A DNA stretch of 22,926 nt from an uncultured Faecalibacterium sp. (GTDB lineage: Bacteria > Bacillota > Clostridia > Oscillospirales > Ruminococcaceae): contig CAKTFS010000027.1 of the NCBI GenBank assembly GCA_934561115.1, forward strand, positions 1 through 22,926, given 5' to 3'. The position numbers and the translations under genes were made by a program. Positions 9,481 to 22,571 of this stretch are shown here, one piece after another. Under the pieces are notes generated by a model, which had not been told where the DNA came from, ran no database searches, and saw nothing but the letters and a program-made list of their open reading frames with translations. Numbering within the stretch: the first letter of the stretch is position 1; each line of letters begins with the position of its first letter.

Positions 9481-9657
9481 GACGATTTGAAATGGCCTCC
9501 GCGCTGCTCTGGCCATCAATAGCGGAAAGAATATTTTAAATAGAGCAATGCCGGAGCGTCTGCGGACGCTCCGGCATTGCATTTTCACGGGAAAGGGGTC
9601 GTAAAGGCAAGCGGCATTTGCAGCGCCGCTTTCTGCGAAAGCGCGGCGCTGCGGGGC
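9481..9657 (+). repeat. Family B structured element, copy B1, with terminator-like hairpin
   Basis: The element begins at the base after the argF stop. In order it has: GACGATTT; a stem ATGGCC/GGCCAT enclosing TCCGC; AGCGGA, which could pair with the TCCGC loop; an A+T-rich run; a perfect 16-bp stem (9545-9560 with 9565-9580) with a TGCG loop followed by ATTTTC; the tail CACGGGAAAGGGGTCGT; and a hairpin of the type CAGCGCC/GGCGCTG near 9620-9653. The 16-bp stem is a plausible terminator for argD-argF. The tail is nearly the same as in copy B6 (22334-22376). Confidence 0.85.
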
Positions 9658-9660
9658 AGC

Positions 9661-9800
9661 GGGCTCGCCCTCTCCGTCTTTGCTTCGCAAATCCACCTCT
9701 CCCAAAGGGAGAGGCCTTGGCAGTCCACACAAAGTGACCGGTTTCGCCAGAGACTCTCCCTTTGGGAGAGCTGTCACCGCAGGTGACTGATGAGGGCGCG
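9661..9800. repeat. Family A palindromic element, copy A6
   Basis: The left end is GGGCTCGCCCTCTCCGTC with hairpin TTTGC-TTC-GCAAA and CCTCTCCC/GGGAGAGG. The right arm has ACTCTCCC/GGGAGAG, GTCACC-GCA-GGTGAC and a decayed end TGATGAGGGCG. Its spacer contains CCTTGGCAGTCCACACAAA, nearly the reverse complement of the spacer in copies A5 and A9, so the spacer has been inverted here. Confidence 0.75.
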
Positions 9801-9823
9801 CCTTTAGCTGCTGCTTGCCGATA

Positions 9824-9978
9824 CCCCTCATCCGGCGCTGCGCGCCACCTTCCCCCCAAGGGGTGAAGGCTTCAGCTCTCCCGCACAATTTGCAATTCAA
9901 CCGGTGACTTTCCCGCTATGCCAAGGGCTCTCCCTTTGGGAGAGCTGGCGCGTTAGCGCCTGAGAGGGCGAGGACGCT
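9824..9978. repeat. Family A palindromic element, copy A7
   Basis: The left end CCCCTCATCC with GGCGC-TGC-GCGCC and CCTTCCCC/GGGGTGAAGG is diverged. The right arm GGCTCTCCC/GGGAGAGCT, GGCGC-GTTA-GCGCC and CTGAGAGGGCGAGGACGCT is intact. With A6 and the flanking B elements it fills a gene-free region of about 640 bases. Confidence 0.7.
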
Positions 9979-10123
9979 AAAGTTTGCAGCTGCCGCTCCC
10001 GTTGCAGCCCCTCCTGTGAAAATAGCGTTTGGAGCGGCCCGCAGGCCGCGACAAACGCGAAATAAAAATAATCTTTCCGCTAATTATGGCCAGAGCGCAA
10101 GCGGAGGCCATTCAAAATCGTCC
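9979..10123 (-). repeat. Family B structured element, copy B2 (inverted)
   Basis: On the minus strand this reads GGACGATTT, stem ATGGCC/GGCCAT with TCCGCT in the loop, AGCGGA downstream, an A+T-rich run, and a 15-bp stem (10025-10039 with 10044-10058) with a TC/TC internal mismatch and a TGCG loop. It then continues with ATTTTCACAGGAGGGGC. With B1 it forms an inverted pair bracketing two family A copies. Confidence 0.8.
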
Positions 10124-10133
10124 CTACCCCGCA

Positions 10134-10165
10134 AAAACCGGGCAGCCTGCGGGCTGTCCGGTTTT
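10134..10165 (+). terminator. Intrinsic terminator downstream of the repeat cluster
   Basis: AAAACCGG-GCAGCC pairs with GGCTGT-CCGGTTTT around a TGCG loop and is followed by GTGTTTG. The flanking A-run and T-run make it potentially bidirectional. It insulates the arginine operon and repeats from the next promoters. Confidence 0.75.
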
Positions 10166-10275
10166 GTGTTTGCGTTGGCTGGTGTTTTCTGCCGCGATCC
10201 CACCCGGTAAAAGACATTTCGTGCCATTTTAGGCAATTTCGTGCAAAAGCACTCTACTTCTGCCGCCGCGCATGG

Positions 10276-10281
10276 TATACT
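10276..10281 (+). promoter_or_regulatory. Promoter P1 (extended -10)
   Basis: TATACT is preceded by TGG, giving an extended -10 TGGTATACT. No convincing -35 box is seen 16-18 bases upstream. Two copies of ATTTCGTGC (10216-10224 and 10236-10244) lie upstream exactly 20 bases apart, two helical turns, and could bind a regulator. Transcription would start near 10288. Confidence 0.55.
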
Positions 10282-10287
10282 ATGGGT

Positions 10288-10380
10288 GCAGAGCAATGCT
10301 CCGCAAAACGCCATCCCCAATATTTCCTATAGAACAGAGAACCGTCCGGTAACCGCAACCCGGGCGGCTTTCTGTTTTTT
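10288..10380 (+). ncRNA. Candidate short leader or small RNA ending at a terminator
   Basis: Between promoter P1 and promoter P2 lies a segment of about 90 bases that ends in a hairpin (CCGTCCGG 10342-10349 with CCGGGCGG 10360-10367, one G-T pair) followed by CTTTCTGTTTTTT. It contains no plausible coding sequence. It could be a stand-alone small RNA or an attenuated leader for the downstream surface-protein gene. I recognise no known riboswitch or RNA family in it. Confidence 0.4.
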
Positions 10381-10456
10381 ATGGGCACGCCGGGGCGTTT
10401 CAGCGCATTTGCGGGGCGATTCGTGACCAAAATCGTCCAAAATGCCTGAATCGTGG

Positions 10457-10462
10457 TACACT
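10457..10462 (+). promoter_or_regulatory. Promoter P2 for the surface-protein gene
   Basis: TACACT preceded by TGG again gives an extended -10 (TGGTACACT), closely like P1; both are followed by a G-run and GCA. Upstream are further TCGTG motifs at 10421 and 10451. An 8-bp leader hairpin AAGCGCCC/GGGCGCTT (10475-10482 with 10491-10498) follows, immediately before the ribosome binding site AAAGGAG (10501-10507). Confidence 0.55.
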
Positions 10463-10515
10463 GGGGGCAACAAAAAGCGCCCGGCTTGGAGGGCGCTTGA
10501 AAAGGAGAGGATCTT

Positions 10516-13500
10516 ATGCACAAACGGCTCATCAGCATGGTTCTGGCGCTGAGCATGGCACTGTCCGCATTGCCGCTGCCAGCCCTTGCCCAGAGCGCCC
10601 CGCCCGACACCGCCAGCGCCGAAGCGCTGGCAGAGGAAAACGACGATGTCATCAATATCTATACAGATGACTGGTCCAGCAAGCCCTCCGGCGGCAGCAG
10701 GGACAGCTGGTCCTACGATGAGACCAGCAAAACGCTTACCCTGAAAACCGGCACCTTCCGGCTCTACCATCATAGTAATAGCGTCTACAATAATTACAGC
10801 AAATTGAACGTGAAAATCGAAGCTGGTGCCACCCTGCAGGAAGCACGGATCGGCTCGGAACACGATACCAGATACACCGTGACCAACGCAGGCACCATCT
10901 CCGGCGGCACCTTCTACGGCAAGGTGACCTGCGAAGCCGGGGCTGTCATCAGCGGCGGCACCTTTAAAGGAACTGCCACTGTTGATGCTGCGGGCGGCGA
11001 TGTTACCATTGAAGATGGCACCTTTGAAGAGGTCAGTTATACCAGCGGCGTGACCGTTAAAGCCGCCGGTACCCTTACCATCAACGGCGGCACCTTTAAG
11101 GGCACGCGCACCTGCTCCGTGGATATCGGCAATTGTGAAAAGGTCGTCATCAACGGAGGCAGCTTTGAAACCTCGCTCATGAATTATGAAGAGACAACGA
11201 AAATCATCATCAATGGCGGTCTGTTCAACGGCAAGCTGTCTGTTGCAGGAGATAAATGCACCGTCAACGGCGGTCTGTTTACGGCGGCAAGCGACCCGCT
11301 GCCCGAGGGTGCAACCGTCAAGGGCGGCTACTTCACGGCAGAACACACAGGGCTTGTAGCCATTGATGCAGCCGATGTTCCGGTGTACCTCCCTGTCGCA
11401 GTGGCAGCGGACGGCACGGTGACCGCGTGGTCGGAAGATACTTATAGTACCGTCTATGTCACACCCAACACCAGTGTCACCCTGAAGCCCACCTGCAAGC
11501 TGGAAAGCATCGTCAGCGGCGGCGCGGAGCTGGAATATACCACCGGGAGCGGCGCGTTCAGCTTTACTGCGGGCACGGAAACTGTCCGGCTCAACAGCGC
11601 TTTTGCAGGGGAGCTGGTCATTGAAGCGAACGGCTTCCCCAAGGGCACGAACGGCGGTGTCTACGGAGCAAAGGGCGATGGCTGGACCTTCGAACCGGAA
11701 CGCAAAAATCCGGAGACTTTCGGCAGGAAGACCCCCACCCTGATCATCGGGAAGGACACGACGCTGGACTTCGACAAGGTGACAAATAAGGCCGGTGCGG
11801 TGAAATTTGCAGTCGAAAACTACGGCACCTTCAGCGGCACGCTGAGATCTGAAATGACATCTGACCTGTATGTGTACAACAGGGAGAGCGGCACGATCCG
11901 CAACGCCACGCTGGACGGGCTGAACAACCTTTACAACGACGGCCTTGTGGAGGACTCGGTGCTGCGCGTTGAATATATCGGCAACGGCTGGCGCGAAACG
12001 GCGCAGCCCGCTACCATCCGCAACTCTGCGCTGGATATTATCGGCTACGGTTGGCTGGTGGCCAACAGCTCTACCTACAAGGCTGTGCTGGACGGCTGCT
12101 ATAACAGCGCCGGTTATACCGGCACTGCCACGATCGACAACGGCGGCACGGTCAAAAACAGCAAAAGCACCCTGAAGCTGGTAGTGAAAAACATAGGCAG
12201 ATATGACGGCAATGGAAAGCCCTACCAGCCTGTCATTGACGGCGGCGAGTATACCGTTGTCTATAACGAGGACGGCATCATCCAGAATGCCCCCACCATC
12301 CACGCACTGGTGGCAAAGGATCCCAAAGACCTGAACGGCGCTACGGATTACTACACCCTGAAATACACCGCACCGGAAGACGCCACCTACTTTAAACAAT
12401 ACATCAACGGCATCAACGGCATGATCGAGGGCATCTGGAGCGCAAAGGTCTCCACCCTCTACGTTGACACCGATCAGGACACCATCTCGGTCATCACCCA
12501 CGCTCCCATCAAGAGCGTGAACGGCGTGACCTACAACGGCTCTGTGCCCTATGATGCAGAGCGCTACACCAGCACCATCGACCTGAGCCGGTACGATATC
12601 CCGCAGACCCATACCCTCAACCTGAGCGCCACCGCCGAGGGCACGGCAGCGCTGCCGGATGCAGACCCCGCAGACTTTACCTTTACCATGCCCGCCAACG
12701 CCGTATATGACGGCGAGGAACACGGCATCAAAGTGCGTGCAGCTGCCGGAAAGGGCTATGGCAATGTTACCGTGACCTATATCTCCGGTACAGAGAAGTT
12801 TACCGCAGTTTACGATGCGGACGGCGTGCTGCTGAGCGGCAAGCGACCCGTAAATGCAGGCGATTACACCTTTACCGCCGTGGCAGCGGCTACCGACAGC
12901 TGCGCGGGCGGCGATGTGACCCCGAAGGATAACAAATTTACCATCCAGAAGGCCGAGCTGAAGGCAACGGACTTCAACATTCTGGTGAGCTACACCACTG
13001 TCGGCGATGGGCAGAGTTATACGGCTTACATGAATGATCAGAGCCCCGATTCCCCGCTTATTCTGCGCTACGGCGATACGATCACCGGGTACAAGATCGT
13101 TTCCTATGCGGAAGCCGTTGGTGAGCCTGCTCCTTATACCGCGGCTGTCATGGGCAACTATGATGTGCTGGACGACAACGGCAACAAGATCGGCACCAGC
13201 AGCGGCACGCCCACAAAACCCGGGCACTACCGCCTGAGCATCCGGGTGACCGCCGATGCAAACCACTATGTGGCCTCGGAGCTGCAGAGCGAAGATTGGG
13301 TGCTGGATATCTGGCGCGCCCCGCTGTACATCTCGGACTTTACCGTGACGGAGCCCGACCTGACCTATGACGGCACTGCCAAGGCAGTGACCGTGACGAA
13401 CAACAGCGAAAAGGACTACGGCGAGATCACCGTGACCTACCGGAACGACCCCTATAATTCGGACGGCGCAGTGCTGGACGGTGCTCCCGTTGAGCCGGGC

Positions 13501-14052
13501 GTATACTTCTATACCGTCAACGCCGCAGGCGGCGCACTGCACGAGGGCGGTCTTGTGGCAAGCGGCTCGTTCCGCATCAGAGAAGCTGGTAAGCCGGATC
13601 CTGATCCGAAGCCCGAACCGGAACCTGAGCCGAAACCGGAACCCGACCCTGAACCTGCTCCCGCGCCGGATAGCACGGATTCCGGCCTGCTGGATGCCGT
13701 GACCATCGTGGCTGGTTCAGCGGCATTGTATGCGGGCATTGGAGCGGTCGGTTACGAGACCGTTACGTACAGCATCCTTGCAGAACTGCTGCCCAAGGGT
13801 ACGCCCATCCCGACCACCCGGGAACAGCTGGCAGTGCTGGTGTGGAACACCGCAGGCAAACCTGAACCCACTGCACCCGCTGTTTACAGCGATGTAGCCG
13901 AGCCCGAGACCGCCAAGGCAGCCCGCTGGGCTGTGGAGGCCGGGCTGCTGCCTGACATGGGCGAGGGCGCCTTTATGCCCGGCAAGCGTGTGACCAAGGT
14001 ACAGGTCATCCGCGCCTTGAACCGGCTGAAAAAGCTGGGTCTGGCGAAATAA
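10516..14052 (+). CDS. Large secreted surface protein with beta-helix-like repeats, Ig-like modules and an SLH-like C-terminus
   Basis: The 1178-residue product begins with a signal peptide (MHKR, hydrophobic core, likely cut after A25). Residues about 125-275 contain around eight repeats of the form (I/V)xGGTF, typical of a right-handed beta-helix or pectate-lyase-like solenoid. Residues about 715-815 and 936-1020 are two modules with the YDG...NAGDYTF and YDGT...PGVYFYTV pattern of MBG/Ig-like adhesin domains. A proline/acid-rich linker (about 1025-1052) leads to a hydrophobic stretch (1057-1080) and an SLH-like region (TTREQLAVLVW...YSDVAE...AARWAVEAGLL). No sortase motif is seen. It is probably exported and held on the wall by the SLH-like end. 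No catalytic residues are evident; a role in adhesion or glycan binding is inference. The start has AAAGGAG nine bases upstream. Confidence 0.75.
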   Translation: MHKRLISMVLALSMALSALPLPALAQSAPPDTASAEALAEENDDVINIYTDDWSSKPSGGSRDSWSYDETSKTLTLKTGTFRLYHHSNSVYNNYSKLNVKIEAGATLQEARIGSEHDTRYTVTNAGTISGGTFYGKVTCEAGAVISGGTFKGTATVDAAGGDVTIEDGTFEEVSYTSGVTVKAAGTLTINGGTFKGTRTCSVDIGNCEKVVINGGSFETSLMNYEETTKIIINGGLFNGKLSVAGDKCTVNGGLFTAASDPLPEGATVKGGYFTAEHTGLVAIDAADVPVYLPVAVAADGTVTAWSEDTYSTVYVTPNTSVTLKPTCKLESIVSGGAELEYTTGSGAFSFTAGTETVRLNSAFAGELVIEANGFPKGTNGGVYGAKGDGWTFEPERKNPETFGRKTPTLIIGKDTTLDFDKVTNKAGAVKFAVENYGTFSGTLRSEMTSDLYVYNRESGTIRNATLDGLNNLYNDGLVEDSVLRVEYIGNGWRETAQPATIRNSALDIIGYGWLVANSSTYKAVLDGCYNSAGYTGTATIDNGGTVKNSKSTLKLVVKNIGRYDGNGKPYQPVIDGGEYTVVYNEDGIIQNAPTIHALVAKDPKDLNGATDYYTLKYTAPEDATYFKQYINGINGMIEGIWSAKVSTLYVDTDQDTISVITHAPIKSVNGVTYNGSVPYDAERYTSTIDLSRYDIPQTHTLNLSATAEGTAALPDADPADFTFTMPANAVYDGEEHGIKVRAAAGKGYGNVTVTYISGTEKFTAVYDADGVLLSGKRPVNAGDYTFTAVAAATDSCAGGDVTPKDNKFTIQKAELKATDFNILVSYTTVGDGQSYTAYMNDQSPDSPLILRYGDTITGYKIVSYAEAVGEPAPYTAAVMGNYDVLDDNGNKIGTSSGTPTKPGHYRLSIRVTADANHYVASELQSEDWVLDIWRAPLYISDFTVTEPDLTYDGTAKAVTVTNNSEKDYGEITVTYRNDPYNSDGAVLDGAPVEPGVYFYTVNAAGGALHEGGLVASGSFRIREAGKPDPDPKPEPEPEPKPEPDPEPAPAPDSTDSGLLDAVTIVAGSAALYAGIGAVGYETVTYSILAELLPKGTPIPTTREQLAVLVWNTAGKPEPTAPAVYSDVAEPETAKAARWAVEAGLLPDMGEGAFMPGKRVTKVQVIRALNRLKKLGLAK

Positions 14053-14088
14053 CCATTGCCATCTCCCGATCGATCCTTTCCAATAAGC

Positions 14089-14128
14089 GCAGCAAGGCCG
14101 CCCGGCGAATGCCGGACGGCCTTGCTGC
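14089..14128. terminator. Terminator between convergent genes
   Basis: GCAGCAAGGCCG (14089-14100) pairs with CGGCCTTGCTGC (14117-14128), and an inner CCGGC/GCCGG stem with loop GAAT gives a very long hairpin. It is followed by ACTTTA on the plus strand. It lies between the stops of the plus-strand surface gene and the minus-strand nuclease gene and probably serves both. Confidence 0.7.
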
Positions 14129-14144
14129 ACTTTAGGGGAACTCG

Positions 14145-14429
14145 TTATACCTCAGGACACCCGGCGGCGCGCCATGCGGCGCACAGCACCTCTTTTTCCG
14201 CCTTGGAAAGCTTTTTCAGGGCGGCTTCCCGGCGCAGAGCGGCGCGTTTGTCCGCGCAGCGCTCTATATAGGCAAAGCCCACCGCGCCGTGGGCGCGGGT
14301 GTAGCGGGCCCCTTTGCCGCTCTGGTGCGCTTTCAGCCGGGCGGCGGGGTGGTTCGTCCAACCGGTGTACAGCTGCCCGCCGGTGCAGCGCACCATGTAG
14401 ACGTAGGCGGCGTCAGGCAAGGCGGCCAT
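14145..14429 (-). CDS. GIY-YIG domain nuclease, small YhbQ-like type
   Basis: The 94-residue protein is a stand-alone GIY-YIG domain: YVYMVRC at the start, LYTGWTNHPAARLKAH with the arginine of the active site, then GKGARYTR and a C-terminal helix with a conserved glutamate region (ALRREAALKKL). This matches the UPF0213/YhbQ group, whose members are thought to act on DNA but are poorly characterised. It starts inside the 3' end of the upstream gene, overlapping it by 17 bases, and only a weak AGGTG lies before its ATG, so its translation probably depends on the upstream gene. Family call is firm, function is not. Confidence 0.88.
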   Translation of the reverse strand: MAALPDAAYVYMVRCTGGQLYTGWTNHPAARLKAHQSGKGARYTRAHGAVGFAYIERCADKRAALRREAALKKLSKAEKEVLCAAWRAAGCPEV

Positions 14430-15243
14430 TGTTTTTCAGCACCTGACGGCAGGCGGCAAGGGCGGTCTCCTTGTCCTTGGCGGTAATGAGAAAACGGCTG
14501 GCGTGGCAGAAGCTGATGCCCGGGATGCCGCTCTTCTGCTCGATGACCTCCTGCGGCTGCCCCGCCCACGACTGCGGGAAGGGCAGTTTGGACTTTTTGG
14601 TTTTGTGGTCGGTGACGCACTGGGCGCTCCACCCGCCGCGCTGGCTGGGGTACACCACAAACAGGGCGTCGGTCTTGTACAGGCCGTTTTTCCACGGCAG
14701 ATAGCAGGGCAGCACCACGATGCCATCGCGGGAGCTGCGGTAGGCCTGCTGCACCTTTTCGTCCGCGCGGTTCACGGCGTTGGCGCTGTCGATCTGGTTC
14801 TCCAGGATCTGCTTTGCCACGGCCACCGCCTTGAAAAAGCAGGTGTCCTGATCTTCCTTGGAGTCCCACACCGGGTTGAAAAAGCCGATGGCATCGCACA
14901 GGCTGTTCTGCTCGCCGGTGTTGTCGTTCAGGTCCAGCGGCTGGATGAAGTTCTCGTCAATGAGCCGCGCCTGCCGCTCGCCCACAAGGCCGGGGCCTAG
15001 CACCCGCCACAGCAGGCCGAAGGCCGCGTAGGGCACGCCGTTGGCGCGGTACTCCCGGGGCTCCTGATGGTGGTCGAACATCCCGAAGCCGATGTCGTAC
15101 ACGATGCCCTCAAAATCGTCGGGCACGGTAAAGCCGCGGGTGATCCTGATATCCGGGCGCAGAATCTGCAGCAGCGCCGTAGCAAACACGTCATCGGCAT
15201 GGAACTTGCCGGCGTGGGTAAAACCGTTTGCGGGAATTTTCAT
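14413..15243 (-). CDS. MYG1-family (UPF0160) metal-dependent hydrolase
   Basis: The 276-residue protein carries the MYG1 signatures: THAGKFHADDVFATALL near the N-terminus and YDIGFGMFDHHQEPREY about 50 residues later. The His/Asp residues (HADD, FDHHQ) resemble the metal site of DHH phosphoesterases; eukaryotic MYG1 is described as a 3'-5' RNA exonuclease, and the bacterial role is unclear. An ATG at 15273 is in frame, but the promoter at 15282-15310 would start transcription almost on it, and the only Shine-Dalgarno (AGGAG/GAGG) lies between it and the ATG at 15243. The later start is therefore chosen. It forms a two-gene unit with the GIY-YIG nuclease. Confidence 0.88.
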   Translation of the reverse strand: MKIPANGFTHAGKFHADDVFATALLQILRPDIRITRGFTVPDDFEGIVYDIGFGMFDHHQEPREYRANGVPYAAFGLLWRVLGPGLVGERQARLIDENFIQPLDLNDNTGEQNSLCDAIGFFNPVWDSKEDQDTCFFKAVAVAKQILENQIDSANAVNRADEKVQQAYRSSRDGIVVLPCYLPWKNGLYKTDALFVVYPSQRGGWSAQCVTDHKTKKSKLPFPQSWAGQPQEVIEQKSGIPGISFCHASRFLITAKDKETALAACRQVLKNNGRLA

Positions 15244-15281
15244 GGACTTGATACCTCGTTCTCCTAATTTCATCTGGTATC

Positions 15282-15310
15282 AGTATAGCACAATCCCGCC
15301 CGTGGGACAA
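15282..15310 (-). promoter_or_regulatory. Promoter of the MYG1 / GIY-YIG pair
   Basis: On the minus strand TTGTCC (15305-15310) and TATACT (15282-15287) are separated by 17 bases. The start would fall near 15275, about 30 bases before the chosen ATG at 15243. Confidence 0.75.
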
Positions 15311-15313
15311 CAA

Positions 15314-15346
15314 AAAGGAACGGCAGCGCTGCCGCCGTTCCTTTTG
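15314..15346. terminator. Bidirectional terminator-like hairpin
   Basis: AAAAGGAACGGC (15314-15325) pairs with GCCGTTCCTTTT (15335-15346), with A-run and T-run on opposite ends. It sits directly upstream of the MYG1 promoter and would block read-through from either side. Confidence 0.7.
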
Positions 15347-15348
15347 TG

Positions 15349-15590
15349 TGGGATGATTGAAAATGGCTTCCGCTGCGCTCTAGCCATGTTTAGCGGAAAT
15401 ATGATTTAAAGATTCGCGTTTGGAGCGACCGCGTTTGTGGAGCGCAGCGTAGCAATGAAAGCCCCAGTGGGGCTTTTAAGCGGCAGAGCGGTCTGCGTTA
15501 GCAGATGGAGGTGCTTTGCCCCGACAAGCTCTGCGGAGCGCTCCAAACGCATTTTCACAGGAGGGGTTGCAACCGAAAACTGCATTTACG
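15349..15590 (+). repeat. Family B structured element with enlarged hairpin, copy B3
   Basis: The head has a GATTG-type start, stem ATGGCT/AGCCAT, loop TTCCGCT and downstream AGCGGAA. The usual terminal hairpin has arms GCGTTTGGAGCG and CGCTCCAAACGC, but these are separated by about 110 bases that carry their own hairpins (for example AAAGCCCC/GGGGCTTT). The tail ATTTTCACAGGAGGGGTTG follows. It looks like an insertion into the hairpin apex. Confidence 0.7.
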
Positions 15591-15822
15591 ACCCCTCCCG
15601 TGAAAATGGGATAGCGGAGCGTCCGCAGACGCTCCGCTATCCCGAAATAAAAATAATACTTCCGCTGATGATGCGCAGCAACGACGACGACCGCCGCCAG
15701 CGGCGGAAACAGGGAGGAGTTGTTGGGGCAGCGGCCAGCAAGACGCGAGTGCCGCCCAAGGCACGATGCGGATGCTGGGTGCCGCAACCCGGAAGCAAGC
15801 GGAAGCCATTTTCAACCGTCCT
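15587..15822 (-). repeat. Family B structured element, copy B4 (inverted, expanded)
   Basis: Read on the minus strand it begins GGACGGTTGAAAATGGCT with TTCCGCT. It is then interrupted by about 100 bases before TGCGCAT and AGCGGAA. It continues with an A+T run and a perfect 16-bp stem (15608-15623 with 15628-15643) with a TGCG loop on the element strand, then ATTTTCACGGGAGGGGTCGT. It lies tail to tail with B3. The two head arms (ATGGCT and TGCGCAT) no longer match, suggesting recombination between copies. Confidence 0.7.
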
Positions 15823-15863
15823 ACAACAAAAAGGCTGCTGCACAGCGGTTTGTGCAGCAGCCT
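15823..15863 (-). terminator. Intrinsic terminator of the phosphoribosyltransferase-like gene
   Basis: On the minus strand a perfect 13-bp stem AGGCTGCTGCACA/TGTGCAGCAGCCT is followed by TTTTTGTTG. It starts 13 bases after the stop of the gene at 15877. Confidence 0.88.
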
Positions 15864-15876
15864 ATAACAGTTTTGC

Positions 15877-16512
15877 TTACAGCGCCGAGTAGCCGAAGCT
15901 GTTCACCAGCGCGTCAATGTGCTGCCCGGCCTTGCACAGGGGGCAGTCGCGGGAGTCGAAGCTGGCGTAATCCGGCAGACTGGTGGGGTCAAAGATGGAG
16001 GTGACCGGGTAGCCGAGGCACTCGTGGGTGGTGGCGAAAATGGCCGAAAGCCCGGCCACGATGCCGCCGTAGTAGTTTACGGCTTCCACGGCTGCCTGAA
16101 TGGTGTAGCCGGTGGTGACGGACGCGGCCAGAATGAGGACGTTCTTGCCCTTGACCATGGGGGCAAGATTGTCCCGCAGAATGATTTGGCTGCCGGAGGT
16201 GTATTCCGGGGTGACGATATAGATGGTCTTGTGGGCGTTCATATTGGTAAAGCCGTCCTTGGTCAGCTCGTTGGCAAGACAGGTGCCAATGACCTGTGTG
16301 CCGTCCAAGCAGAGCACGGTATCCACGATGGTGCTGTGCTGGTAAGCGCTGACCAGCTCCTTTGCCACGGCCTTGGCCTCGGAAAGGCGGGTCTTTTGGG
16401 TGGTCACGTCGATGTAATAGTTGATGTGGCTGTGGCTGGTGGCAAAATGTCCCTTGGCCACCCGCAGGAACAGTTCGCTTTTGCTGGTGGGAAGCTTGAC
16501 CATGTTGATCAT
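15877..16512 (-). CDS. Phosphoribosyltransferase-like protein lacking the acidic pair
   Basis: The 211-residue protein resembles orotate-type phosphoribosyltransferases: an N-terminal GHFATSHSHINYYIDV, a middle domain with VLCLDGTQVIG, and the PRPP loop region VLILAASVTTGYT at residues 125-137. In active enzymes the two positions before the TTG loop are acidic (DD or ED) and bind the ribose hydroxyls; here they are A129 and A130. A CPLC motif (C190, C193) near the end could bind a metal. So it may bind nucleotides or PRPP without transferring, or be an unusual enzyme. AGGAG lies nine bases before the ATG at 16512. It is divergent from the MATE gene and has its own promoter, leader hairpins and terminator. 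Confidence 0.75.
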   Translation of the reverse strand: MINMVKLPTSKSELFLRVAKGHFATSHSHINYYIDVTTQKTRLSEAKAVAKELVSAYQHSTIVDTVLCLDGTQVIGTCLANELTKDGFTNMNAHKTIYIVTPEYTSGSQIILRDNLAPMVKGKNVLILAASVTTGYTIQAAVEAVNYYGGIVAGLSAIFATTHECLGYPVTSIFDPTSLPDYASFDSRDCPLCKAGQHIDALVNSFGYSAL

Positions 16513-16536
16513 TGTACAGCACTCCTTTTTTCACCG

Positions 16537-16594
16537 GGCGCAGCTGCGCCGCAAAATACAAAACAGCGCGGCAACGCATTCCGGTTGCAGCGCT
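16537..16594 (-). promoter_or_regulatory. Structured leader with possible attenuator
   Basis: The leader RNA of the gene at 15877-16512 (start near 16610) first forms a stem AGCGC/GCGCT plus GCAAC/GTTGC (16565-16594). On the minus strand this stem is followed by the T-rich GTTTTGTATTTT, so it is terminator-like. A perfect 14-bp palindrome (16537-16550) follows before the ribosome binding site. This arrangement allows transcription attenuation, but no second mutually exclusive fold was worked out. Confidence 0.4.
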
Positions 16595-16616
16595 TATTTT
16601 TCTTCTCTGTTCCTTT

Positions 16617-16645
16617 ATTGTACTGAAAAATGCCGCTGTGCACAA
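16617..16645 (-). promoter_or_regulatory. Promoter of the phosphoribosyltransferase-like gene
   Basis: On the minus strand TTGTGC (16640-16645) and TACAAT (16617-16622) are 17 bases apart. Between this promoter and about 16840 I see no gene and no clear signal. Confidence 0.7.
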
Positions 16646-16845
16646 GACACAAACCTGACGAAAAACCTTGGCTTTTTGCAGACATATCGCCGAAAACTTG
16701 GATGCAAAGGCCGCTGCCGCCCGGAAAAGCGCACCGCAAAGGGCGTGCAGCCGCAACACCGGCGCTGCGGCAGGGGAGAAGGGCACTCTTTTGCGCAGCA
16801 CGGGAAACTTTGCAAAAAGGGACTGGTATTTTTGTGGGTTTTGAG

Positions 16846-16938
16846 TATAATATAGGAAAGATAGTTCAAATTTGAAATATAGCAGTTTGCGTTTTTAATG
16901 CCTTGACAACATCCGCAAACTGCATATCGCAAATATGC
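16846..16938 (+). promoter_or_regulatory. Control region of the MATE gene with three palindromes
   Basis: A perfect -10-like TATAAT lies at 16846-16851 without a good -35. Downstream are a perfect 12-bp palindrome TTCAAATTTGAA (16865-16876), a 10-bp inverted repeat GCAGTTTGCG/CGCAAACTGC (16882-16891 and 16914-16923) that brackets a consensus -35 box TTGACA (16903-16908), and GCATAT/ATATGC (16922-16927 and 16933-16938). The -10 for that TTGACA is poor (TATCGC). Operators for a repressor or activator are likely; the regulator is not in the window. Confidence 0.55.
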
Positions 16939-16990
16939 CGTTTTGATAGGCGCTATTCTTGAAAATTGCGATAAAAGGAGAATCACATCC

Positions 16991-18358
16991 ATGGCACAGG
17001 CAAAACAGGATATGGGCTCTGGCAGCGTAAAAAAGCTGATGCTGCAGCTCATGATCCCGGCGGTCGTTGCACAGGTGGTCAACCTGCTGTATAACATCGT
17101 GGACCGCATCTACATCGGACATATCGCCGGCATCGGCGCGGCAGCGCTGACCGGCGTGGGACTGTTCACCCCCATCCTTATGCTGCTGAACGCATTCGCC
17201 ATGCTGGTGGGTGCGGGCGGCGCGCCCCGCACCGCCATTGCGCTGGGACAGGGCGACAAGGAGCAGGCGGAGAAGATCATCTCCAACAGCTTTACCATGC
17301 TGCTGCTCTTTTCGGTGGTGCTGACCGTGGTGTTCTACGCCGGGGCACCCACCCTGCTGCGGCTCTTTGGTGCCAGTGACGCCACCCTGCCCTATGCGCT
17401 GGCGTACAGCCGCATCTACATTCTGGGCTCGGTGTTCGTGCTGCTGGTGCTGGGCATGAACCCCTTTATCACCACGCAGGGCTTTGCCAAGACCAGTATG
17501 CTTACCACCGTCATCGGTGCGGTCATCAACATTATCCTCGACCCCATCCTGATCTTTGGGCTGGGGCTGGGCGTGCGGGGCGCTGCCATTGCCACCGTGC
17601 TCAGTCAGGCCGTGGGCGCGGTGTGGATCCTGCGCTTCCTCACCGGCAAAAAGACCATCCTGCGCCTGCGCAAGGACTATATGCGCCCGGAAAAAAAGGT
17701 CATCCTGCCGGTGATGGCGCTGGGCATCTCCACCTTTGTGATGATGTCCACTGAGAGCCTGCTGTCCATCAGCTTCAGCTCCAGTCTGGCGCGGTACGGC
17801 GGCGATGTGGCTGTGGGTGCCATGACCGTCATCACCAGCGCCTCCCAGCTGTGCACCCTGCCCATTCAGGGCATCTGTCAGGGCGGTCAGCCGGTGATGA
17901 GCTTCAACTTCGGCGCGGGCAAAAAGTCCCGCGTCAAGGAGGCGTTCCATTTCCAGCTGCTGCTGTGCAGCTGCTACACCTGCCTGTTCTGGCTGCTCAT
18001 GATGCTGGTGCCGGGGGCTGTGGCGGGCATCTTCACCTCGGATACGGCGCTCATCGACTACACCACATGGTCCATGCGCATCTACATGGCCGGCATCTTT
18101 GCCATGGGCTTCCAGATCGCCTGCCAGCAAAGCTTTATGGCGCTGGGACAGGCCAAGGTCAGCCTGCTGCTGGCCTGCCTGCGCAAGATCATTTTGCTGA
18201 TCCCGCTCATCTTCATCCTGCCGCACCTGCTGCCGGACCCGGTATTCGGCGTCTTTCTGGCAGAGCCGGTCAGCGATATTCTGGCGGCCACCATCACCAC
18301 CATCACCTTCTTCTCCCGCTTCAACGGCATTCTGGAACGGGGTGCTGCAAAGGTATAA
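16991..18358 (+). CDS. MATE family multidrug/cation antiporter
   Basis: The 455-residue protein has the length and roughly 12 hydrophobic segments of MATE transporters, which export cationic drugs or metabolites using Na+ or H+ gradients. The family signature appears near the N-terminus (MIPAVVAQVVNLLYNIVDRIYIGH) in parts, with GVGLFTPILMLLNAFAMLVGAGGAP after it and the second-half repeat ITSASQLCTLPIQGICQGGQPVMSFNFGA. This places it near the MepA/DinF-like group. The start at 16991 has AAAAGGAG (16973-16980) in front; an earlier in-frame ATG at 16943 lacks a site. Substrate cannot be read from sequence. It is divergent from the phosphoribosyltransferase-like gene. Confidence 0.92.
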   Translation: MAQAKQDMGSGSVKKLMLQLMIPAVVAQVVNLLYNIVDRIYIGHIAGIGAAALTGVGLFTPILMLLNAFAMLVGAGGAPRTAIALGQGDKEQAEKIISNSFTMLLLFSVVLTVVFYAGAPTLLRLFGASDATLPYALAYSRIYILGSVFVLLVLGMNPFITTQGFAKTSMLTTVIGAVINIILDPILIFGLGLGVRGAAIATVLSQAVGAVWILRFLTGKKTILRLRKDYMRPEKKVILPVMALGISTFVMMSTESLLSISFSSSLARYGGDVAVGAMTVITSASQLCTLPIQGICQGGQPVMSFNFGAGKKSRVKEAFHFQLLLCSCYTCLFWLLMMLVPGAVAGIFTSDTALIDYTTWSMRIYMAGIFAMGFQIACQQSFMALGQAKVSLLLACLRKIILLIPLIFILPHLLPDPVFGVFLAEPVSDILAATITTITFFSRFNGILERGAAKV

Positions 18359-18367
18359 TGAAATAGA

Positions 18368-18409
18368 ACAAGCCCGGAAAGTCTGTGGACTTTCCGGGCT
18401 TGTGTTTTT
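18368..18409 (+). terminator. Intrinsic terminator of the MATE gene
   Basis: A perfect 16-bp stem (18368-18383 with 18388-18403) with loop TGTG is followed by GTTTTTA. It starts nine bases after the MATE stop codon. Confidence 0.92.
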
Positions 18410-18423
18410 ACGGGAGGGAGACG

Positions 18424-18771
18424 AACTCCCTCAGTCATCGCTGTGCGATGCCAGCTCCCTCGGGGAGGGAGCCTCTGGCGAGAAGGGTGACTTTCTGGTT
18501 TTGCCAAAGGCCCCATCCCAGAGGGGGCTGTCTGCGTAGCAGACTGGGGGAGTTTGCTATGCGGCATAGCCACCTTCCCCAAGGGGACGGCAACCCTCTC
18601 AGTCATCGCTGCGCGATGCCAGATTCCCCTTTTTGTCACCTGCGGTGACATCTTCCCCCGGAGCGGGGGAAGTCTTTCCTCTCAGGGGGGAGCTTTTTTC
18701 ATCTTCCGGTTAGCACAAATAAAGCTCCCCCTTCGGGGGAGCTGGCGAACGAACGTGAGCCTGAGAGGGTT
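18424..18771. repeat. Compound family A region, copies A8a and A8b
   Basis: Two family A units are joined. A8a (about 18424-18555) runs from CTCCCTCAGTC with CATCGC-TGT-GCGATG to GTCTGC-GTA-GCAGAC with GGGGGAGT. A8b (about 18590-18771) runs from ACCCTCTCAGTC with CATCGC-TGC-GCGATG to CTGAGAGGGT. A8b includes the nested module GTCACC-TGC-GGTGAC with CTTCCCCC/GGGGGAAG and an AGCTCCCC-type hairpin followed by TTTTTT. It fills the gap between the convergent MATE and ATP-grasp genes; no gene is seen. Confidence 0.75.
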
Positions 18772-18787
18772 CGTTCGTCTCGCCCAA

Positions 18788-20071
18788 TTACTTTTCTACC
18801 TTTGCCGTCTCCGGCTCGCCAAGAGCCAGCACCTGCGTCAGCTCAGCCTGCACCTTTGCGTTGGTGGCATCGGTGACGGCCAGCACGTCGGAGTAGAACT
18901 TTTCCATCTCGTCACGGGTGGAGAAGGTGGCCACATACATCTGGTTGCCCATGGCACCGGACAGCGCCTCGGGGATGCGGTCCACCATGCGCATGTTGTC
19001 CTGATACTTCTGCATCAGCTGCTCGTGGCTGTAAACGAAGCTCTTGCCGTCCCGGCGTCCGGCAAAGGCGCAGTAGTAGTGCTCACCCACCGGCATGTCG
19101 GTGCCGCCGAAGGCGATCATGTCTGCCCAGATCTTGTACACGTTGGTGGAGCGGGCAAAGTCGATCATGTCCGGGGTAAAGCCGCCGCAGGGGCGCATGT
19201 TGACTTCCAGTGCCACGATCTGGCCTTTTTTGCCCATGCTGGCCTGATCTTCGGTCATGCGGAAGAACTCGAAGTGGACAAAGCGGCTCTTCACCCCAAA
19301 GCTCTTGACGGCGGCACGGCCTGCGGCGCGGGTGTCCTCCGGCAGATCCTTGATGATGTAGTAGATGGAGTTGTCGTCGTTGTTCACGATGTCCATGATG
19401 GACACGGGGCTCACGTTGCCCGCCTCAAAGATGGGGTTGCCGTGGGCGTCGATGATGGCATCGTAGCTGTTTACCTCGGCGCGGACGAACTCCTCCATGA
19501 TGTAGGCCACATCCGGGTGCTCCTTCTCCTTGTAAGCCAGAAATTCCTTCAGCTCCTTGTCGCTGGAAAGGCGGTGAGTATCCGAAGCGCCCACGCCGTT
19601 GTCCGGCTTGACCACCACCGGGTAGCCCACCTGCGCCACAAAGGCCTTGCAGCCTGCAAGGTCGTCCACCATGTGGTAGTGGGCAGTGGCGATGCCGGCC
19701 TTCTGGTAGTACTCCTTCATCTTGCTCTTGTACTTGATGCGGGGCATATCGCAGGTCTGGAAGCCGCTGGTGATGTGGAAATCGGTGCGCAGAGCGGCAT
19801 CCCGTTCCAGCCAGTATTCATTGTTGGACTCCAGCCAGTCGATGCGGCCATACTTGAAGGTGAAAAAGGCCACGGCGCGGTAGACCTCGTCGTAGTTTTC
19901 CAAGCTGTTCACCTTGTAGTATTCGTTCAGGCTTGCCTTCAGCTCCGGCTTCAGCTCCTCATAGGGCTGGTCGCCGATGCCCAGCACGTTCAGGCCGTTG
20001 TTCTTCAGCTCCCGGCAGAACTGCCAGTAGTTCGTGGGGAAGTTGGGGGAGATAAAAATAAAGTTCTGCAT
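18788..20071 (-). CDS. ATP-grasp family carboxylate-amine ligase
   Basis: The 427-residue protein has an ATP-grasp layout. There is an N-terminal pre-ATP-grasp domain (FIFISPNFPTNYWQFCREL), the glycine-rich ATP loop PVVVKPDNGVGASDTH at residues 151-166, the hinge IMEEF at 191-195, FVHFEFF at 265-270 and the Mg-ATP site EVNMRPCGGF at 289-298. Such enzymes activate a carboxylate as acyl phosphate and join it to an amine or thiol. The substrate is unknown; it is closer to stand-alone peptide-forming ligases than to biotin carboxylase or D-Ala ligase. A somewhat distant GAGGA lies 13 bases before the ATG. Two co-directional alpha/beta hydrolase genes lie upstream. Confidence 0.85.
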   Translation of the reverse strand: MQNFIFISPNFPTNYWQFCRELKNNGLNVLGIGDQPYEELKPELKASLNEYYKVNSLENYDEVYRAVAFFTFKYGRIDWLESNNEYWLERDAALRTDFHITSGFQTCDMPRIKYKSKMKEYYQKAGIATAHYHMVDDLAGCKAFVAQVGYPVVVKPDNGVGASDTHRLSSDKELKEFLAYKEKEHPDVAYIMEEFVRAEVNSYDAIIDAHGNPIFEAGNVSPVSIMDIVNNDDNSIYYIIKDLPEDTRAAGRAAVKSFGVKSRFVHFEFFRMTEDQASMGKKGQIVALEVNMRPCGGFTPDMIDFARSTNVYKIWADMIAFGGTDMPVGEHYYCAFAGRRDGKSFVYSHEQLMQKYQDNMRMVDRIPEALSGAMGNQMYVATFSTRDEMEKFYSDVLAVTDATNAKVQAELTQVLALGEPETAKVEK

Positions 20072-20130
20072 AGTATTTGTTGATTCCTCTTTCCGTTACC
20101 TCTATGATTGCAATGCCCCCGCGGGGCGGG

Positions 20131-20245
20131 ACGATTTAAAATGCCCGCCGCGCTGCTTTGGGCATTCTTAGCGGAATAATGATTTATATTCGGCACAACG
20201 GCGCGTCTGCGGACGCGCCGTTGTGCCATTTTCACGGGAAGGAGT
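20131..20245 (+). repeat. Family B structured element, copy B5 (compact)
   Basis: GGGACGATTT is followed by stem ATGCCC/GGGCAT with CCGC in the loop, AGCGGAA downstream, an A+T run, and a perfect 16-bp stem (20192-20207 with 20212-20227) with a TGCG loop. It ends with ATTTTCACGGGAAGGAG. It is oriented against the flanking minus-strand genes and occupies the gap between the hydrolase stop at 20283 and the ATP-grasp start. Confidence 0.85.
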
Positions 20246-20282
20246 GCCGCTCTGCCAGAAGCGGCACCCGGCGGGGCAGGGG

Positions 20283-21041
20283 TCACTGCTGGCCCAGAAC
20301 GTAGGGCATATAGTACGCCACCTGCTTATACCACCAGTTCCAGTCGTGGTTGACATCGTGACCCCACAGGTCTACCCAGATGGGGATATGCTTTGCCTCA
20401 AAGATGCGCTTGAGCAGCCATGTGGTGTCCGGCTGTTCCCAGTCGCCCTGACCGCAGCAGATGACCGCCTTCTGATTGCGGAACAGCTGCATATAGGGGT
20501 GATCCTCCGGGAAGTTCTTCATGTAGTCCACAGGGGAGTTCATGTACACCAGCTCGTCCATGTAGTTGCCAAAGCCGTAGTGGGCGGTGTAGATGCCGCT
20601 GAGCGCCAGACAGCCGCAGAAGATATCCGGGCGGCGCAGGTACAGGTTTACCGCGTGGGTAGCGCCCAGACTGCACCCGAAAGCGATGATGCCGGGCAGA
20701 TCGCTCCAGCCGTTGCGCTGCTGCGCCAGATGCTGAAGCATCGGGGCGACCTCGCGGGTGATGTAGCGCAGCCACTGCTCATAGCGGCGGATGCGCCAAT
20801 AGGGGTTGCCCTGTGCGTCCGACCATGTTTCCTGATCCATGGTGTCGATGGAAAGCACCATGATCTGCCCGGACTCGATCCACGGGGCAAGGGTGTCGGT
20901 CATGTGGAAGTTTTCAAAATCGAAAAACCGGCCGTCCTGACAGGGGATATACAGCATTGGGCGGCCTGCGTGGCCGTAAAGCTTACACTCCATATCCCGT
21001 CCCAGTTCCGGGCTGTACTCCTTGAAATACTGCATCTCCAT
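20283..21041 (-). CDS. Alpha/beta-hydrolase fold esterase-like protein
   Basis: The 252-residue protein has a nucleophile elbow GCSLG with S124 (context IIAFGCSLGATHAVN), a candidate acid D200 (CCGQGDWEQ) and candidate histidines H228/H232 in WGHDVNHDWNWW, the order of an alpha/beta hydrolase triad. There is no signal peptide, so it acts in the cytoplasm. The open frame extends to 21248 through a repeat, but AAAGGAGG (complement of 21049-21056) sits seven bases before the ATG at 21041, which is the chosen start. The substrate is unknown. It lies between another hydrolase gene and an ATP-grasp gene on the same strand. Confidence 0.82.
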   Translation of the reverse strand: MEMQYFKEYSPELGRDMECKLYGHAGRPMLYIPCQDGRFFDFENFHMTDTLAPWIESGQIMVLSIDTMDQETWSDAQGNPYWRIRRYEQWLRYITREVAPMLQHLAQQRNGWSDLPGIIAFGCSLGATHAVNLYLRRPDIFCGCLALSGIYTAHYGFGNYMDELVYMNSPVDYMKNFPEDHPYMQLFRNQKAVICCGQGDWEQPDTTWLLKRIFEAKHIPIWVDLWGHDVNHDWNWWYKQVAYYMPYVLGQQ

Positions 21042-21105
21042 GGTGTTTCCTCCTTTGATAGTCTGTGCAATCAAAACCCCTTTGGGTTTATCAAAAGTGG
21101 GCAGC

Positions 21106-21301
21106 GGGCTCGCCCTCTCCGTCAGTTCGCTTCGCTCACTGCCACACTCCCCCTTTTGTCGCTGCGCGACATCTTCCCCCGACCGGGGGAAGTCATTCCT
21201 CAAAGGGAGAGGCCTTGGCAAAAAGATGAAGTTTGCGTGGACTGCCAAGGGCTCCCCCTTTGGGGGAGCTGGCGCGTAAGCGCCTGAGAGGGCGAGGACG
21301 C
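21106..21301. repeat. Family A palindromic element with nested module, copy A9
   Basis: The ends are GGGCTCGCCCTCTCCGTC and CTGAGAGGGCGAGGACG. It contains the nested module GTCGC-TGC-GCGAC with CTTCCCCCG/CGGGGGAAG, then the 73-base spacer and arm shared with copy A5 at one difference, and GGCGC-GTAA-GCGCC. It lies between the two hydrolase genes. Confidence 0.85.
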
Positions 21302-21317
21302 TTCCCGTAATCGTTTC

Positions 21318-22088
21318 TTACTCCTCCACCTCATACAGCAGGGTGTGGAACACGAAGGGCAGCTGCTTTTCCCAGCTGGCCTCGCTGTGGGTGCCGCCGG
21401 GCACGATGCGGCTGGTCAGGTGGATGCCCCGGGTCATCAGCTTGCCGCTCAAGTTGGAAAACTCCCGGCGGATGCCCTCGTGGTTGCCCATCTCCCGGGA
21501 ACCGTAGTCCATGTACAGCACCGTGCCGGGGGAAAGCTTTGCACGCCCCACAAGGCCGGAAAGCTTATCCGGCGCCACCCAGATGGAGGGCGACAGTGCC
21601 GCCGCGCGGCTGTAAGTATCGTTATATTGCAGCAGGGCGTACAGGCTCATCAGCCCGCCCATGCTGCTGCCGCCGATAAAGGTATGTGCCCTGTCCGGCA
21701 GGGTGCGGAAATTCTGGTCGATCAGGGGCTTGAACCGGTGGATGAACCAGCTCATGGTGGCTTGTCCCTTGCCGTCAAAGTGGCCGTAGGTGGGGTCATC
21801 GAAGCGGTAGGGGGAATACTCCACCAGACGCTCATTATTCGCCCCGGCGTTGCACTCGATGGCCGCCACGATCAGCGGGGTGTCGGTATAGTCCAGATAA
21901 TCCGCCACGCCCCAGCTTTTGCCGTAGGTGGCATCCTCGTTGAAAAACACGTTCTGCCCATCGAACATATACAGCACGGGGAACCGGCGTTCCGGCTGTG
22001 CCTCGTACATGGTGGGCAGGTAGACATACGCCCGGCGCTGCTCGGTGCCGTTGACCGCCGGGTAACTCATGCTCCATTTTTTGATCAT
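21318..22088 (-). CDS. Esterase D-type alpha/beta hydrolase (putative esterase family)
   Basis: The 256-residue protein matches the putative esterase (esterase D / feruloyl esterase-like) family. RRFPVLYMFDGQNVF is the first strand and oxyanion region, GGSSMGG at 139-145 gives nucleophile S142, D194 lies in LYMDYGSRE and H234 in VPGGTHSEASW. These enzymes cleave small acyl or glycan esters, or siderophore lactones; which applies here is unknown. There is no signal peptide. AGAGGAAAG precedes the ATG at 22088. It is the first of three co-directional genes with the second hydrolase and the ATP-grasp ligase. Confidence 0.88.
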   Translation of the reverse strand: MIKKWSMSYPAVNGTEQRRAYVYLPTMYEAQPERRFPVLYMFDGQNVFFNEDATYGKSWGVADYLDYTDTPLIVAAIECNAGANNERLVEYSPYRFDDPTYGHFDGKGQATMSWFIHRFKPLIDQNFRTLPDRAHTFIGGSSMGGLMSLYALLQYNDTYSRAAALSPSIWVAPDKLSGLVGRAKLSPGTVLYMDYGSREMGNHEGIRREFSNLSGKLMTRGIHLTSRIVPGGTHSEASWEKQLPFVFHTLLYEVEE

Positions 22089-22204
22089 GGTGCTTCTTTC
22101 CTCTCAAATCTTCCTGCAAAGGGCACAGGCGGCAAGCCCACGCCCTTTATAGGTAGTGTAGCACCATGCGGCGGGAATTGCAATCTTTATGCGCAAAGGG
22201 GCGG

Positions 22205-22377
22205 CGGGACGATTTGGAATGCGCTCCGCTTTGCTCTGCGCATCATCAGCGGAATAATTATTTTATTTTCGCGTTTGTCGCGGCCTGCGGGCCGCTCCAA
22301 ACGCATTTTCACGAGAGGGGTCGTGACGGAAAACGGCATTTACAGCGCCGCTTTCTGCGAAAGCGCGGCGCTGTGGT
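22205..22377 (+). repeat. Family B structured element, copy B6
   Basis: GGACGATTT is followed by stem ATGCGC/GCGCAT with TCCGCT in the loop and a fully complementary AGCGGA downstream. Then come an A+T run and a 15-bp stem (22271-22285 with 22290-22304) with TGCG loop and a two-base internal mismatch, the same stem sequence as in B2. The tail ATTTTCACGAGAGGGGTCGT and a CAGCGCC/GGCGCTG hairpin match B1. Confidence 0.82.
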
Positions 22378-22383
22378 TGGCAT

Positions 22384-22541: not shown

Positions 22542-22571
22542 AGCTAAAGAAACACGGGCATCTGCGGTGAT

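What the first reader, a model, noticed from the sequence alone, without database searches (positions are those of the whole stretch)
9481..22377. Family B: a repeated structured element with covarying stems and a possible pseudoknot
Six copies (B1 9481, B2 9979 minus, B3 15349, B4 15587 minus, B5 20131, B6 22205) share an ordered architecture rather than a fixed sequence. The first stem differs between copies but keeps pairing: ATGGCC/GGCCAT, ATGGCT/AGCCAT, ATGCCC/GGGCAT, ATGCGC/GCGCAT. The loop always contains CCGC and the downstream segment always contains AGCGG, complementary to it, the topology of an H-type pseudoknot. The following long stem is exactly 16 bp in B1, B4 and B5, with different sequences but the same TGCG loop, and is followed by ATTTTCAC and a GGGG tail. 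Compensatory change points to selection on the fold. It could be a mobile miniature element, a structured RNA, or a specialised terminator; none is proven.
Basis: partly seen in the sequence, partly recalled or inferred. Interest (0 to 1): 0.75.

Follow-up and report, generated by a model that had tools for sequence, protein, structure and literature searches.

The report
Faecalibacterium mosaic palindromic repeat with swapping stems
The six elements belong to a short repeated DNA family present in about a hundred copies in some gut Faecalibacterium genomes, whose hairpins appear to stay paired because whole matching arms are exchanged between copies, so the covariation does not by itself point to a working RNA.

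Summary
In detail: six copies in the described order, plus a hairpin-only remnant (18366-18428). The element is a dispersed repeat found only in Faecalibacterium in my searches: 79 to at least 119 copies in 8 of 31 genus genomes, 0-3 in the other 23; of 297 family genomes only two match, both Faecalibacterium. Covariation is strong in the first stem and the 16-bp hairpin. The CCGC/AGCGG "pseudoknot" does not covary, and 11 of 15 deviant copies break it. The interpretation shifts from RNA to DNA. Copies lie at random to gene direction, single copies included (45 of 85); many pair tail to tail; some are present or absent at orthologous sites. Between orthologues the hairpin or the first-stem module is often replaced whole, in some cases with the neighbouring module clearly retained. 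Hairpin arms lack the G-U bias of ordinary terminators in the same genomes. Best reading: a REP/BIME-like, probably mobile, mosaic palindromic element without a RAYT partner (none in single-contig genomes G006 and G037). How it moves is not shown.

The parts
9481..9598 (+). B1, complete unit: head GACGATTT, stem 1 ATGGCC (9492-9497)/GGCCAT (9511-9516), AGCGGAA from 9521, 16-bp hairpin 9545-9580, TTTTCACGGGAAAGGGG 9582-9598; begins right after the stop codon of the ornithine carbamoyltransferase gene
10008..10122 (-). B2, unit facing B1 (tail to tail, with family A sequence between them); imperfect hairpin 10025-10058
15349..15566 (+). B3; head at 15352, hairpin 15416-15550 with about 100 nt of another repeat (family C, about 15428-15531) in its loop; the G001 orthologue lacks that insert
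15592..15821 (-). B4, tail-to-tail partner of B3; 16-bp hairpin 15608-15643; family D insert (15678-15794) in the stem 1 loop; stem 1 arms do not match
20130..20244 (+). B5, single unit; hairpin 20192-20227. G001 and G006 have the hairpin at this site but an unrelated short stretch in place of the head
22208..22320 (+). B6, part of a stretch (about 22200-22575) absent from G006; G038 has a B unit with a different first stem and hairpin at the orthologous place
18366..18428 (+). hairpin-only remnant of a B unit (hairpin 18368-18403, loop TGTG) just after the MatE-family gene

Best explanation
B is a non-coding, dispersed palindromic DNA element of about 115-120 bp that works like a REP/BIME unit. 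SHOWN: it is multicopy, clade-restricted, often arranged as tail-to-tail pairs with GACGATTT ends outward, present or absent at some orthologous sites (one pair as a 323-bp unit), and mosaic: at the same site its head (stem 1) and its 16-bp hairpin can differ independently between genomes. INFERRED: units spread as non-autonomous elements, most likely because their folded single-stranded form is recognised by a recombinase or transposase that I did not identify. After insertion, copies exchange modules by gene conversion. The two arms are kept identical either by hairpin-templated DNA repair (quasipalindrome template switching) or by selection for a perfect fold-back in DNA. The conserved motifs GACGATTT, CCGC, AGCGGAA and TTTTCAC would be sequence-specific contacts rather than a pseudoknot.
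For: Copy number and distribution; the B-rich genomes cluster in an argG tree of 24 of the 31 genus genomes plus the window, 0 of 500 shuffles as clustered. Covariation: hairpin 15 of 16 pairs changed on both sides, stem 1 4 of 6. Wobble test: 79 unique hairpins (inner 15 pairs) have 3 G-T and 8 A-C mismatches, against 73 and 27 in 145 other terminators (Fisher p 0.004); with 99 hairpins 6 and 8 (p 0.031). Orientation: upstream gene on the same strand for 75 of 144 copies, 45 of 85 single ones. 27 of 42 plus-then-minus neighbours lie within 400 bp; no head-to-head (33) or tandem (37) neighbours lie within 1 kb. Sites lacking the element; at the B6 site three further genomes, G007, G010 and G012, also lack it, though their intergenic sequence has diverged. 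46 parsed orthologue comparisons: hairpin identical 20, changed at 1-4 positions 4, replaced 22. Where the hairpin was replaced but stem 1 kept (9), mean head identity is 0.91, 4 of 9 at 0.95 or more, against 0.81 and 1% for random copies sharing a stem 1.
Against: No mobilising enzyme was found. Y1_Tnp, RVT_1 and IS110 DEDD genes do not track the element, and G006, a single-contig genome with at least 119 copies, has none of the three. Target duplications are inconsistent: about 6-8 imperfect bases at two sites, none clear at two others. Several 'empty' sites are deletions with remnants, and apart from B6 the direction (gain or loss) was not tested. Gene conversion is inferred; no donor copies were proven, and only 14 of 65 (G001) and 19 of 49 (G006) sampled hairpins have an exact twin in the same sampled genome. 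In 13 of the 22 replaced cases stem 1 differs too and head identity (0.78) is near that of random copies (0.74), so a separate insertion at the same spot is not excluded there; of the 9 with stem 1 kept, 5 have heads below 0.95. Copies from G006 and G038 came from regions chosen for B hits, which may inflate pair counts. The 46 comparisons are not all independent. The wobble test rests on 11-14 mismatches. One covariation measure, the number of further pair types, was reached by 133 of 500 shuffles.
Confidence: 0.72

Rival explanations
1. Classical MITE: a tail-to-tail pair is one miniature transposon with about 115-bp terminal inverted repeats (GACGATTTNNAATG ends), moved by a DDE transposase; single units are half-deleted copies.
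For: Pairs have inverted outer ends; one 323-bp pair is absent as a unit from G001, and short near-duplications flank two sites.
Against: Partners share the hairpin in 0 of 17 parsed pairs and stem 1 in 3 of 17, so the repeats are not recent copies of each other. No gene-bearing element bounded by full B units was recognised in about 2 Mb. Target duplication is not consistent.
Confidence: 0.2
2. Structured RNA or specialised terminator: the transcript folds into stem 1, pseudoknot and long hairpin followed by TTTTC, acting on the upstream gene.
For: Strong covariation; TTTT follows the hairpin; many copies lie just after stop codons or T-runs; B1 begins at a stop codon.
Against: Random orientation to upstream and downstream genes, single copies included; no G-U excess while other terminators in the same genomes show it; the pseudoknot pairs do not covary; no Rfam match; the head can be missing or replaced at orthologous loci.
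Confidence: 0.08
3. Host-protein binding element (nucleoid protein, gyrase or a recombination or uptake signal) kept by selection on the chromosome, as proposed for some REPs.
For: Nearly invariant motifs with freely varying stem sequence; about a hundred copies kept across a clade.
Against: Presence or absence and replacement at orthologous loci; near absence in the other 23 genus genomes searched.
Confidence: 0.1

Closest known systems
REP/BIME and REPIN elements (PMC3116915: abstract and outline seen; PMC3733652: abstract, passages and the section on dimers seen)
   Same: About a hundred or more extragenic palindromic copies, inverted pairs, mosaic organisation, mostly downstream of genes
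   Different: Unit of about 115-120 bp with two stems (6 and 16 bp) instead of one 20-40 bp palindrome; no GTAG tag; no RAYT in B-rich single-contig genomes G006 and G037
CGTC-tagged REPs (PMC3733652)
   Same: The outer end read outward is ...AAATCGTC, so a CGTC motif marks the end; the paper knows no dedicated transposase for them either
   Different: Those have 8-9 bp stems and 4-5 nt loops; the paper lists them from five phyla without Firmicutes, a word it does not contain
Bacterial MITEs that fold strongly (examples named in passages of PMC3733652)
   Same: Short, non-coding, intergenic, folding, near genes
   Different: No clear target duplication here, stem sequences differ between copies, no parent transposon found
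Fungal mitochondrial double-hairpin elements (seen only in a search listing)
   Same: Two hairpins in a small mobile DNA (partly recalled)
   Different: Organellar; no sequence relation tested

Membership tests
REP/REPIN with RAYT | high-copy extragenic palindrome, frequently as inverted doublets | tested here: met
REP/REPIN with RAYT | Y1 tyrosine transposase (RAYT) in genomes carrying the family | tested here: not met
   PF01797: 0 matches in G006 and G037 (one contig each; at least 119 and 93 copies), present in 6 of the 8 B-rich genomes, one of them (G028) with a fragment only; an adjacency in G010 (L041) reads as an IS200-like insertion
REP/REPIN with RAYT | GTAG at the foot of the palindrome | tested here: not met
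   consensus of 56 copies has GACGATTT at the head, no GTAG
CGTC REP | terminal CGTC (read outward) | tested here: met
   G 0.74, A 0.99, C 0.93, G 0.97 at the head of 117 copies, which were located by a GACGATTT search with up to 2 mismatches
CGTC REP | 8-9 bp stem with 4-5 nt loop, 20-40 bp unit | tested here: not met
   stems of 6 and 16 bp in a 115-120 bp unit
MITE | terminal inverted repeats | tested here: inconclusive
   pairs have inverted ends, single units do not
MITE | target site duplication | tested here: inconclusive
   near-duplications at two sites, none clear at two
MITE | autonomous parent transposon with the same ends | tested here: not met
   none recognised in the roughly 2 Mb fetched by then (mainly G001 and G006); not searched elsewhere
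Intrinsic terminator | oriented downstream of genes | tested here: not met
   upstream gene on the same strand for 75 of 144 copies and 45 of 85 single copies, with simple ORF calls
Intrinsic terminator | RNA 3' end at the hairpin | not testable with these tools
   needs term-seq
Structured RNA with H-type pseudoknot | covariation in the pseudoknot helix | tested here: not met
   0 of 5 pairs changed on both sides; 15 of 128 copies deviate, 11 of them breaking a pair; one of the 11 also has one mirrored T-A pair
Structured RNA with H-type pseudoknot | covariation in other stems | tested here: met
   19 of 27 pairs of the whole structure, but see module replacement

The most novel reading that the evidence does not exclude
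A kind of mobile DNA recognised by fold rather than by stem sequence, in which hairpin and head are exchangeable cassettes swapped at occupied sites by a dedicated process, and whose loops and tail serve in turn as docking sites for at least three other repeat families.
Probability: 0.22. Interest if true: 0.8.

Novelty: new variant of a known kind. Interest (0 to 1): 0.52.

Why it matters
It adds a REP/BIME-like family in an abundant human gut genus (Firmicutes, now Bacillota) that lacks a consistent RAYT partner. It is also an example of how strong pairwise covariation, normally read as evidence of a functional RNA, can come from whole-arm exchange or templated repair of palindromic DNA. The wobble strand test (G-T against A-C mismatches, with terminators of the same genomes as control) is a simple check for separating the two. 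Polymorphic copies could serve as strain markers and help to find the unknown mobiliser.

Tried and rejected
Pseudoknot: rejected as a supported feature. Terminator or riboregulator: disfavoured. IS200/RAYT partner: an apparent Y1-B adjacency in G010 (L041) reads as an IS200-like insertion into a B pair. RVT_1 (tried because copies sit after terminators, as group IIC introns do; that comparison is recalled) and IS110: neither tracks copy number. Autonomous element with B-type ends: none recognised. Idea that insertion of family D always breaks stem 1: wrong, 6 of 10 parsed D-bearing copies keep a perfect stem. Avoidance of identical hairpins in pairs: 0 of 17 identical, but I ran no test against the expected rate. 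Papers: searches listed no description of this Faecalibacterium repeat; only open-access PMC text was searched. PMC7202029 and PMC8604942 (template switching in quasipalindromes) were seen only as a search listing.

Selection of data: alignment A1 (56 copies) was picked from 67 parsed copies for a TGCG loop and a near-perfect hairpin, so it is biased towards intact hairpins; the 79- and 99-hairpin sets required at least 12 of 16 pairs and are less so. Of 145 hits counted as full 128 parsed; of 208 in the larger set 184 parsed. Parsing allowed at most one mismatch in CCGC and in AGCGGAA, so strongly deviant copies are not among the 128. Twelve of 58 orthologue comparisons were dropped because a hairpin did not parse. 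The terminator control allowed at most 2 mismatches and masked B neighbourhoods. Gene orientation used simple ORF calls of at least 90 or 150 codons. Model counts per genome are limited to 119 scored candidates; the family search used stricter filters and 12 scored candidates per genome. The head-sequence scan listed 105 sites outside B hits, many of them chance matches.
Full report
WHAT IS THERE. The window carries genes whose Pfam domains fit an arginine biosynthesis cluster (argininosuccinate synthase, argininosuccinate lyase, semialdehyde dehydrogenase, ArgJ, amino acid kinase, class III aminotransferase, ornithine carbamoyltransferase), followed by other genes. Five core sites with a perfect first stem occur in the window, and 100 of 100 dinucleotide shuffles have none. 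The consensus is GGGACGATTTNGAATG(stem 1)CCGC...GCTCT(stem 1')nnTCAGCGGAA, an AT-rich linker of about 18 nt, a 16-bp hairpin with loop TGCG, then TTTTCACGGGAGGG.

DISTRIBUTION. A head pattern with up to two mismatches gives 82 copies in G001, 98 in G006, 25 in G010 and 0-2 in ten other Faecalibacterium; none in 8 genomes outside the genus. A stricter exact pattern found 29 stretches in the public genome collection, every one titled Faecalibacterium. A covariance model finds 119 (the cap) in four genus genomes, then 118, 113, 93 and 79 in four more, and 0-3 in the other 23 of 31. In 297 genomes of the family only two match, both Faecalibacterium. On an argG tree of 24 of the 31 genomes plus the window, the 9 B-rich rows (window included) fall in one starred group of 10 with one poor genome, G023; the label needs two changes, and no shuffle of 500 is as clustered. 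One expansion in one clade is the simplest reading, though a single gene does not prove it.

COVARIATION. On 56 selected copies the 16-bp hairpin has changes on both sides at 15 of 16 pairs, 0 one-sided (G-U) cells and 8 unpaired cells; stem 1 has both-sided changes at 4 of 6 pairs, 3 one-sided and 7 unpaired cells; sliding the partners by 1-3 columns drops paired cells from 97% to 35-43%; four of five measures beat all 500 shuffles, but the number of further pair types does not (133 of 500 reach it). The proposed pseudoknot helix has no pair changed on both sides. In 128 parsed copies 113 have CCGC with AGCGG; of the other 15, eleven break at least one proposed pair (most often CCGC with AGAGG, 6 copies), three keep the pairing through a wobble, and one differs only outside the four pairs. 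The motifs are conserved, but as sequence.

DNA OR RNA? If an RNA strand were selected, one-sided changes should favour G-U over its mirror A-C. 145 other terminators in the same sequences show this (73 against 27), while B hairpins do not (3 against 8 in 79 unique hairpins; Fisher p 0.004; 6 against 8 in 99; p 0.031). B hairpins also carry fewer mismatches of any kind (31 of 1,185 inner pairs against 141 of 1,844). Orientation to the upstream and downstream gene is 38/37/35/34 in 144 of 145 full copies. Because tail-to-tail pairs balance themselves, I repeated this for single copies: the upstream gene is on the same strand in 45 of 85. Copies often start close behind a stop codon, and 51 of 117 have a T-run within 30 nt upstream against 11% of random genomic 30-mers; that background is genome-wide, not intergenic.

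PAIRS AND SITES WITHOUT THE ELEMENT. Of 42 plus-then-minus neighbours 27 lie tail to tail within 400 bp; none of 33 head-to-head or 37 tandem neighbours lies within 1 kb. B6 lies in a stretch of 374 bp in the window and 357 bp in G001 that is absent from G006 and also holds a family A repeat. G007, G010 and G012 lack it too, though their intergenic DNA has diverged, and G038 has a B unit with another first stem and hairpin there. A 323-bp tail-to-tail pair in G006 is absent as a unit from G001. A 149-bp single unit in ATCC 27768 is absent from G006, and I4-1-79 has a longer composite at the same place. A degenerate single unit in G001 is absent from G006. Other cases leave remnants and look like deletions, so loss as well as gain occurs; apart from B6 I did not test the direction. 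B1 (in G001) and B5 (in G001 and G006) have orthologues lacking the head.

STEMS CHANGE AS MODULES. Of 58 orthologue comparisons 46 parsed: hairpin identical in 20, changed at 1-4 positions in 4, replaced by another hairpin in 22. In the small changes the arms change in mirror image; the one exception is the outermost position of one pair. In one replaced pair a single extra one-sided difference was seen, and hairpins of the imperfect GCGTTTG type differ by their fixed internal mismatch. Nine pairs changed the hairpin but kept stem 1: their heads are on average 0.91 identical (4 of 9 at 0.95 or more), against 0.81 for random copies with the same stem 1, of which 1% reach 0.95. Nine pairs kept the hairpin but changed stem 1: their heads are 0.80 identical, closer to random copies (0.74) than to unchanged orthologues (0.95). 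In 13 pairs both changed and the heads (0.78) are also near random copies, so whole replacement or separate insertion at one spot cannot be told apart. Thus head and hairpin can be exchanged separately at occupied sites. One hairpin, GCAATTCTGGAAAATC, occurs with four different first stems. Gene conversion between copies is the likely route, and template switching in quasipalindromes (recalled; papers seen only in a listing) or selection on the DNA fold-back would keep arms matched. These are inferences.

NESTED REPEATS. Family D lies within a few bases behind CCGC, in the stem 1 loop, in B4 and eleven other listed copies; another family (E) also follows CCGC in several copies; family C sits in the TGCG loop of B3 and is missing in the G001 orthologue; family A sits in the tail. 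B units therefore look like targets for other repeats.

WHAT MOVES IT. Y1 transposases, reverse transcriptases and IS110 transposases do not track the element, and G006 lacks all three. No autonomous version was recognised in about 2 Mb. The mobiliser is unknown or lost.

VERDICT. Observation confirmed; RNA interpretation not supported; a REP/BIME-like mosaic DNA element without a consistent RAYT, a new variant of a known kind. The fast exchange of palindromic modules is the part worth following.

Noticed in passing
window 15678-15794 (minus); G001 and G006 loci: Family D (about 117 nt, TATCGGGTTGCGGCACCC...GTCGTCGTCGTTGC) sits at nearly the same point, just behind CCGC in the B head, in B4 and eleven other listed copies.
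   Followed up: partly
window about 15428-15531: Family C repeat in the TGCG loop of the B3 hairpin; absent from the G001 orthologue; the same insert is seen in hairpins of other sequence.
   Followed up: partly
window 9650-9980, 21080-21310, 22384-22545: Family A (CTCTCCCTTTGGGAGAG... with GAGAGGGCGAG ends) is a separate mosaic repeat, often in B tails; the 21058-21317 block is missing at the orthologous site in G001 and G006.
   Followed up: partly
G006 L023:17911-18032 and L028:4214-4464 against G001: Terminator hairpins upstream of B copies also differ wholesale between orthologues while flanks stay alike, so palindrome replacement may be wider than the B family.
   Followed up: no
phage collection hits H1-H15: Fifteen unannotated 'Bacteriophage sp.' records from human faeces contain B-like sequence; they may be bacterial contigs or phages carrying B.
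   Followed up: no
L041:1474-2124: IS200-like gene fragment next to a B pair in G010, probably an insertion that truncated one B unit.
   Followed up: partly
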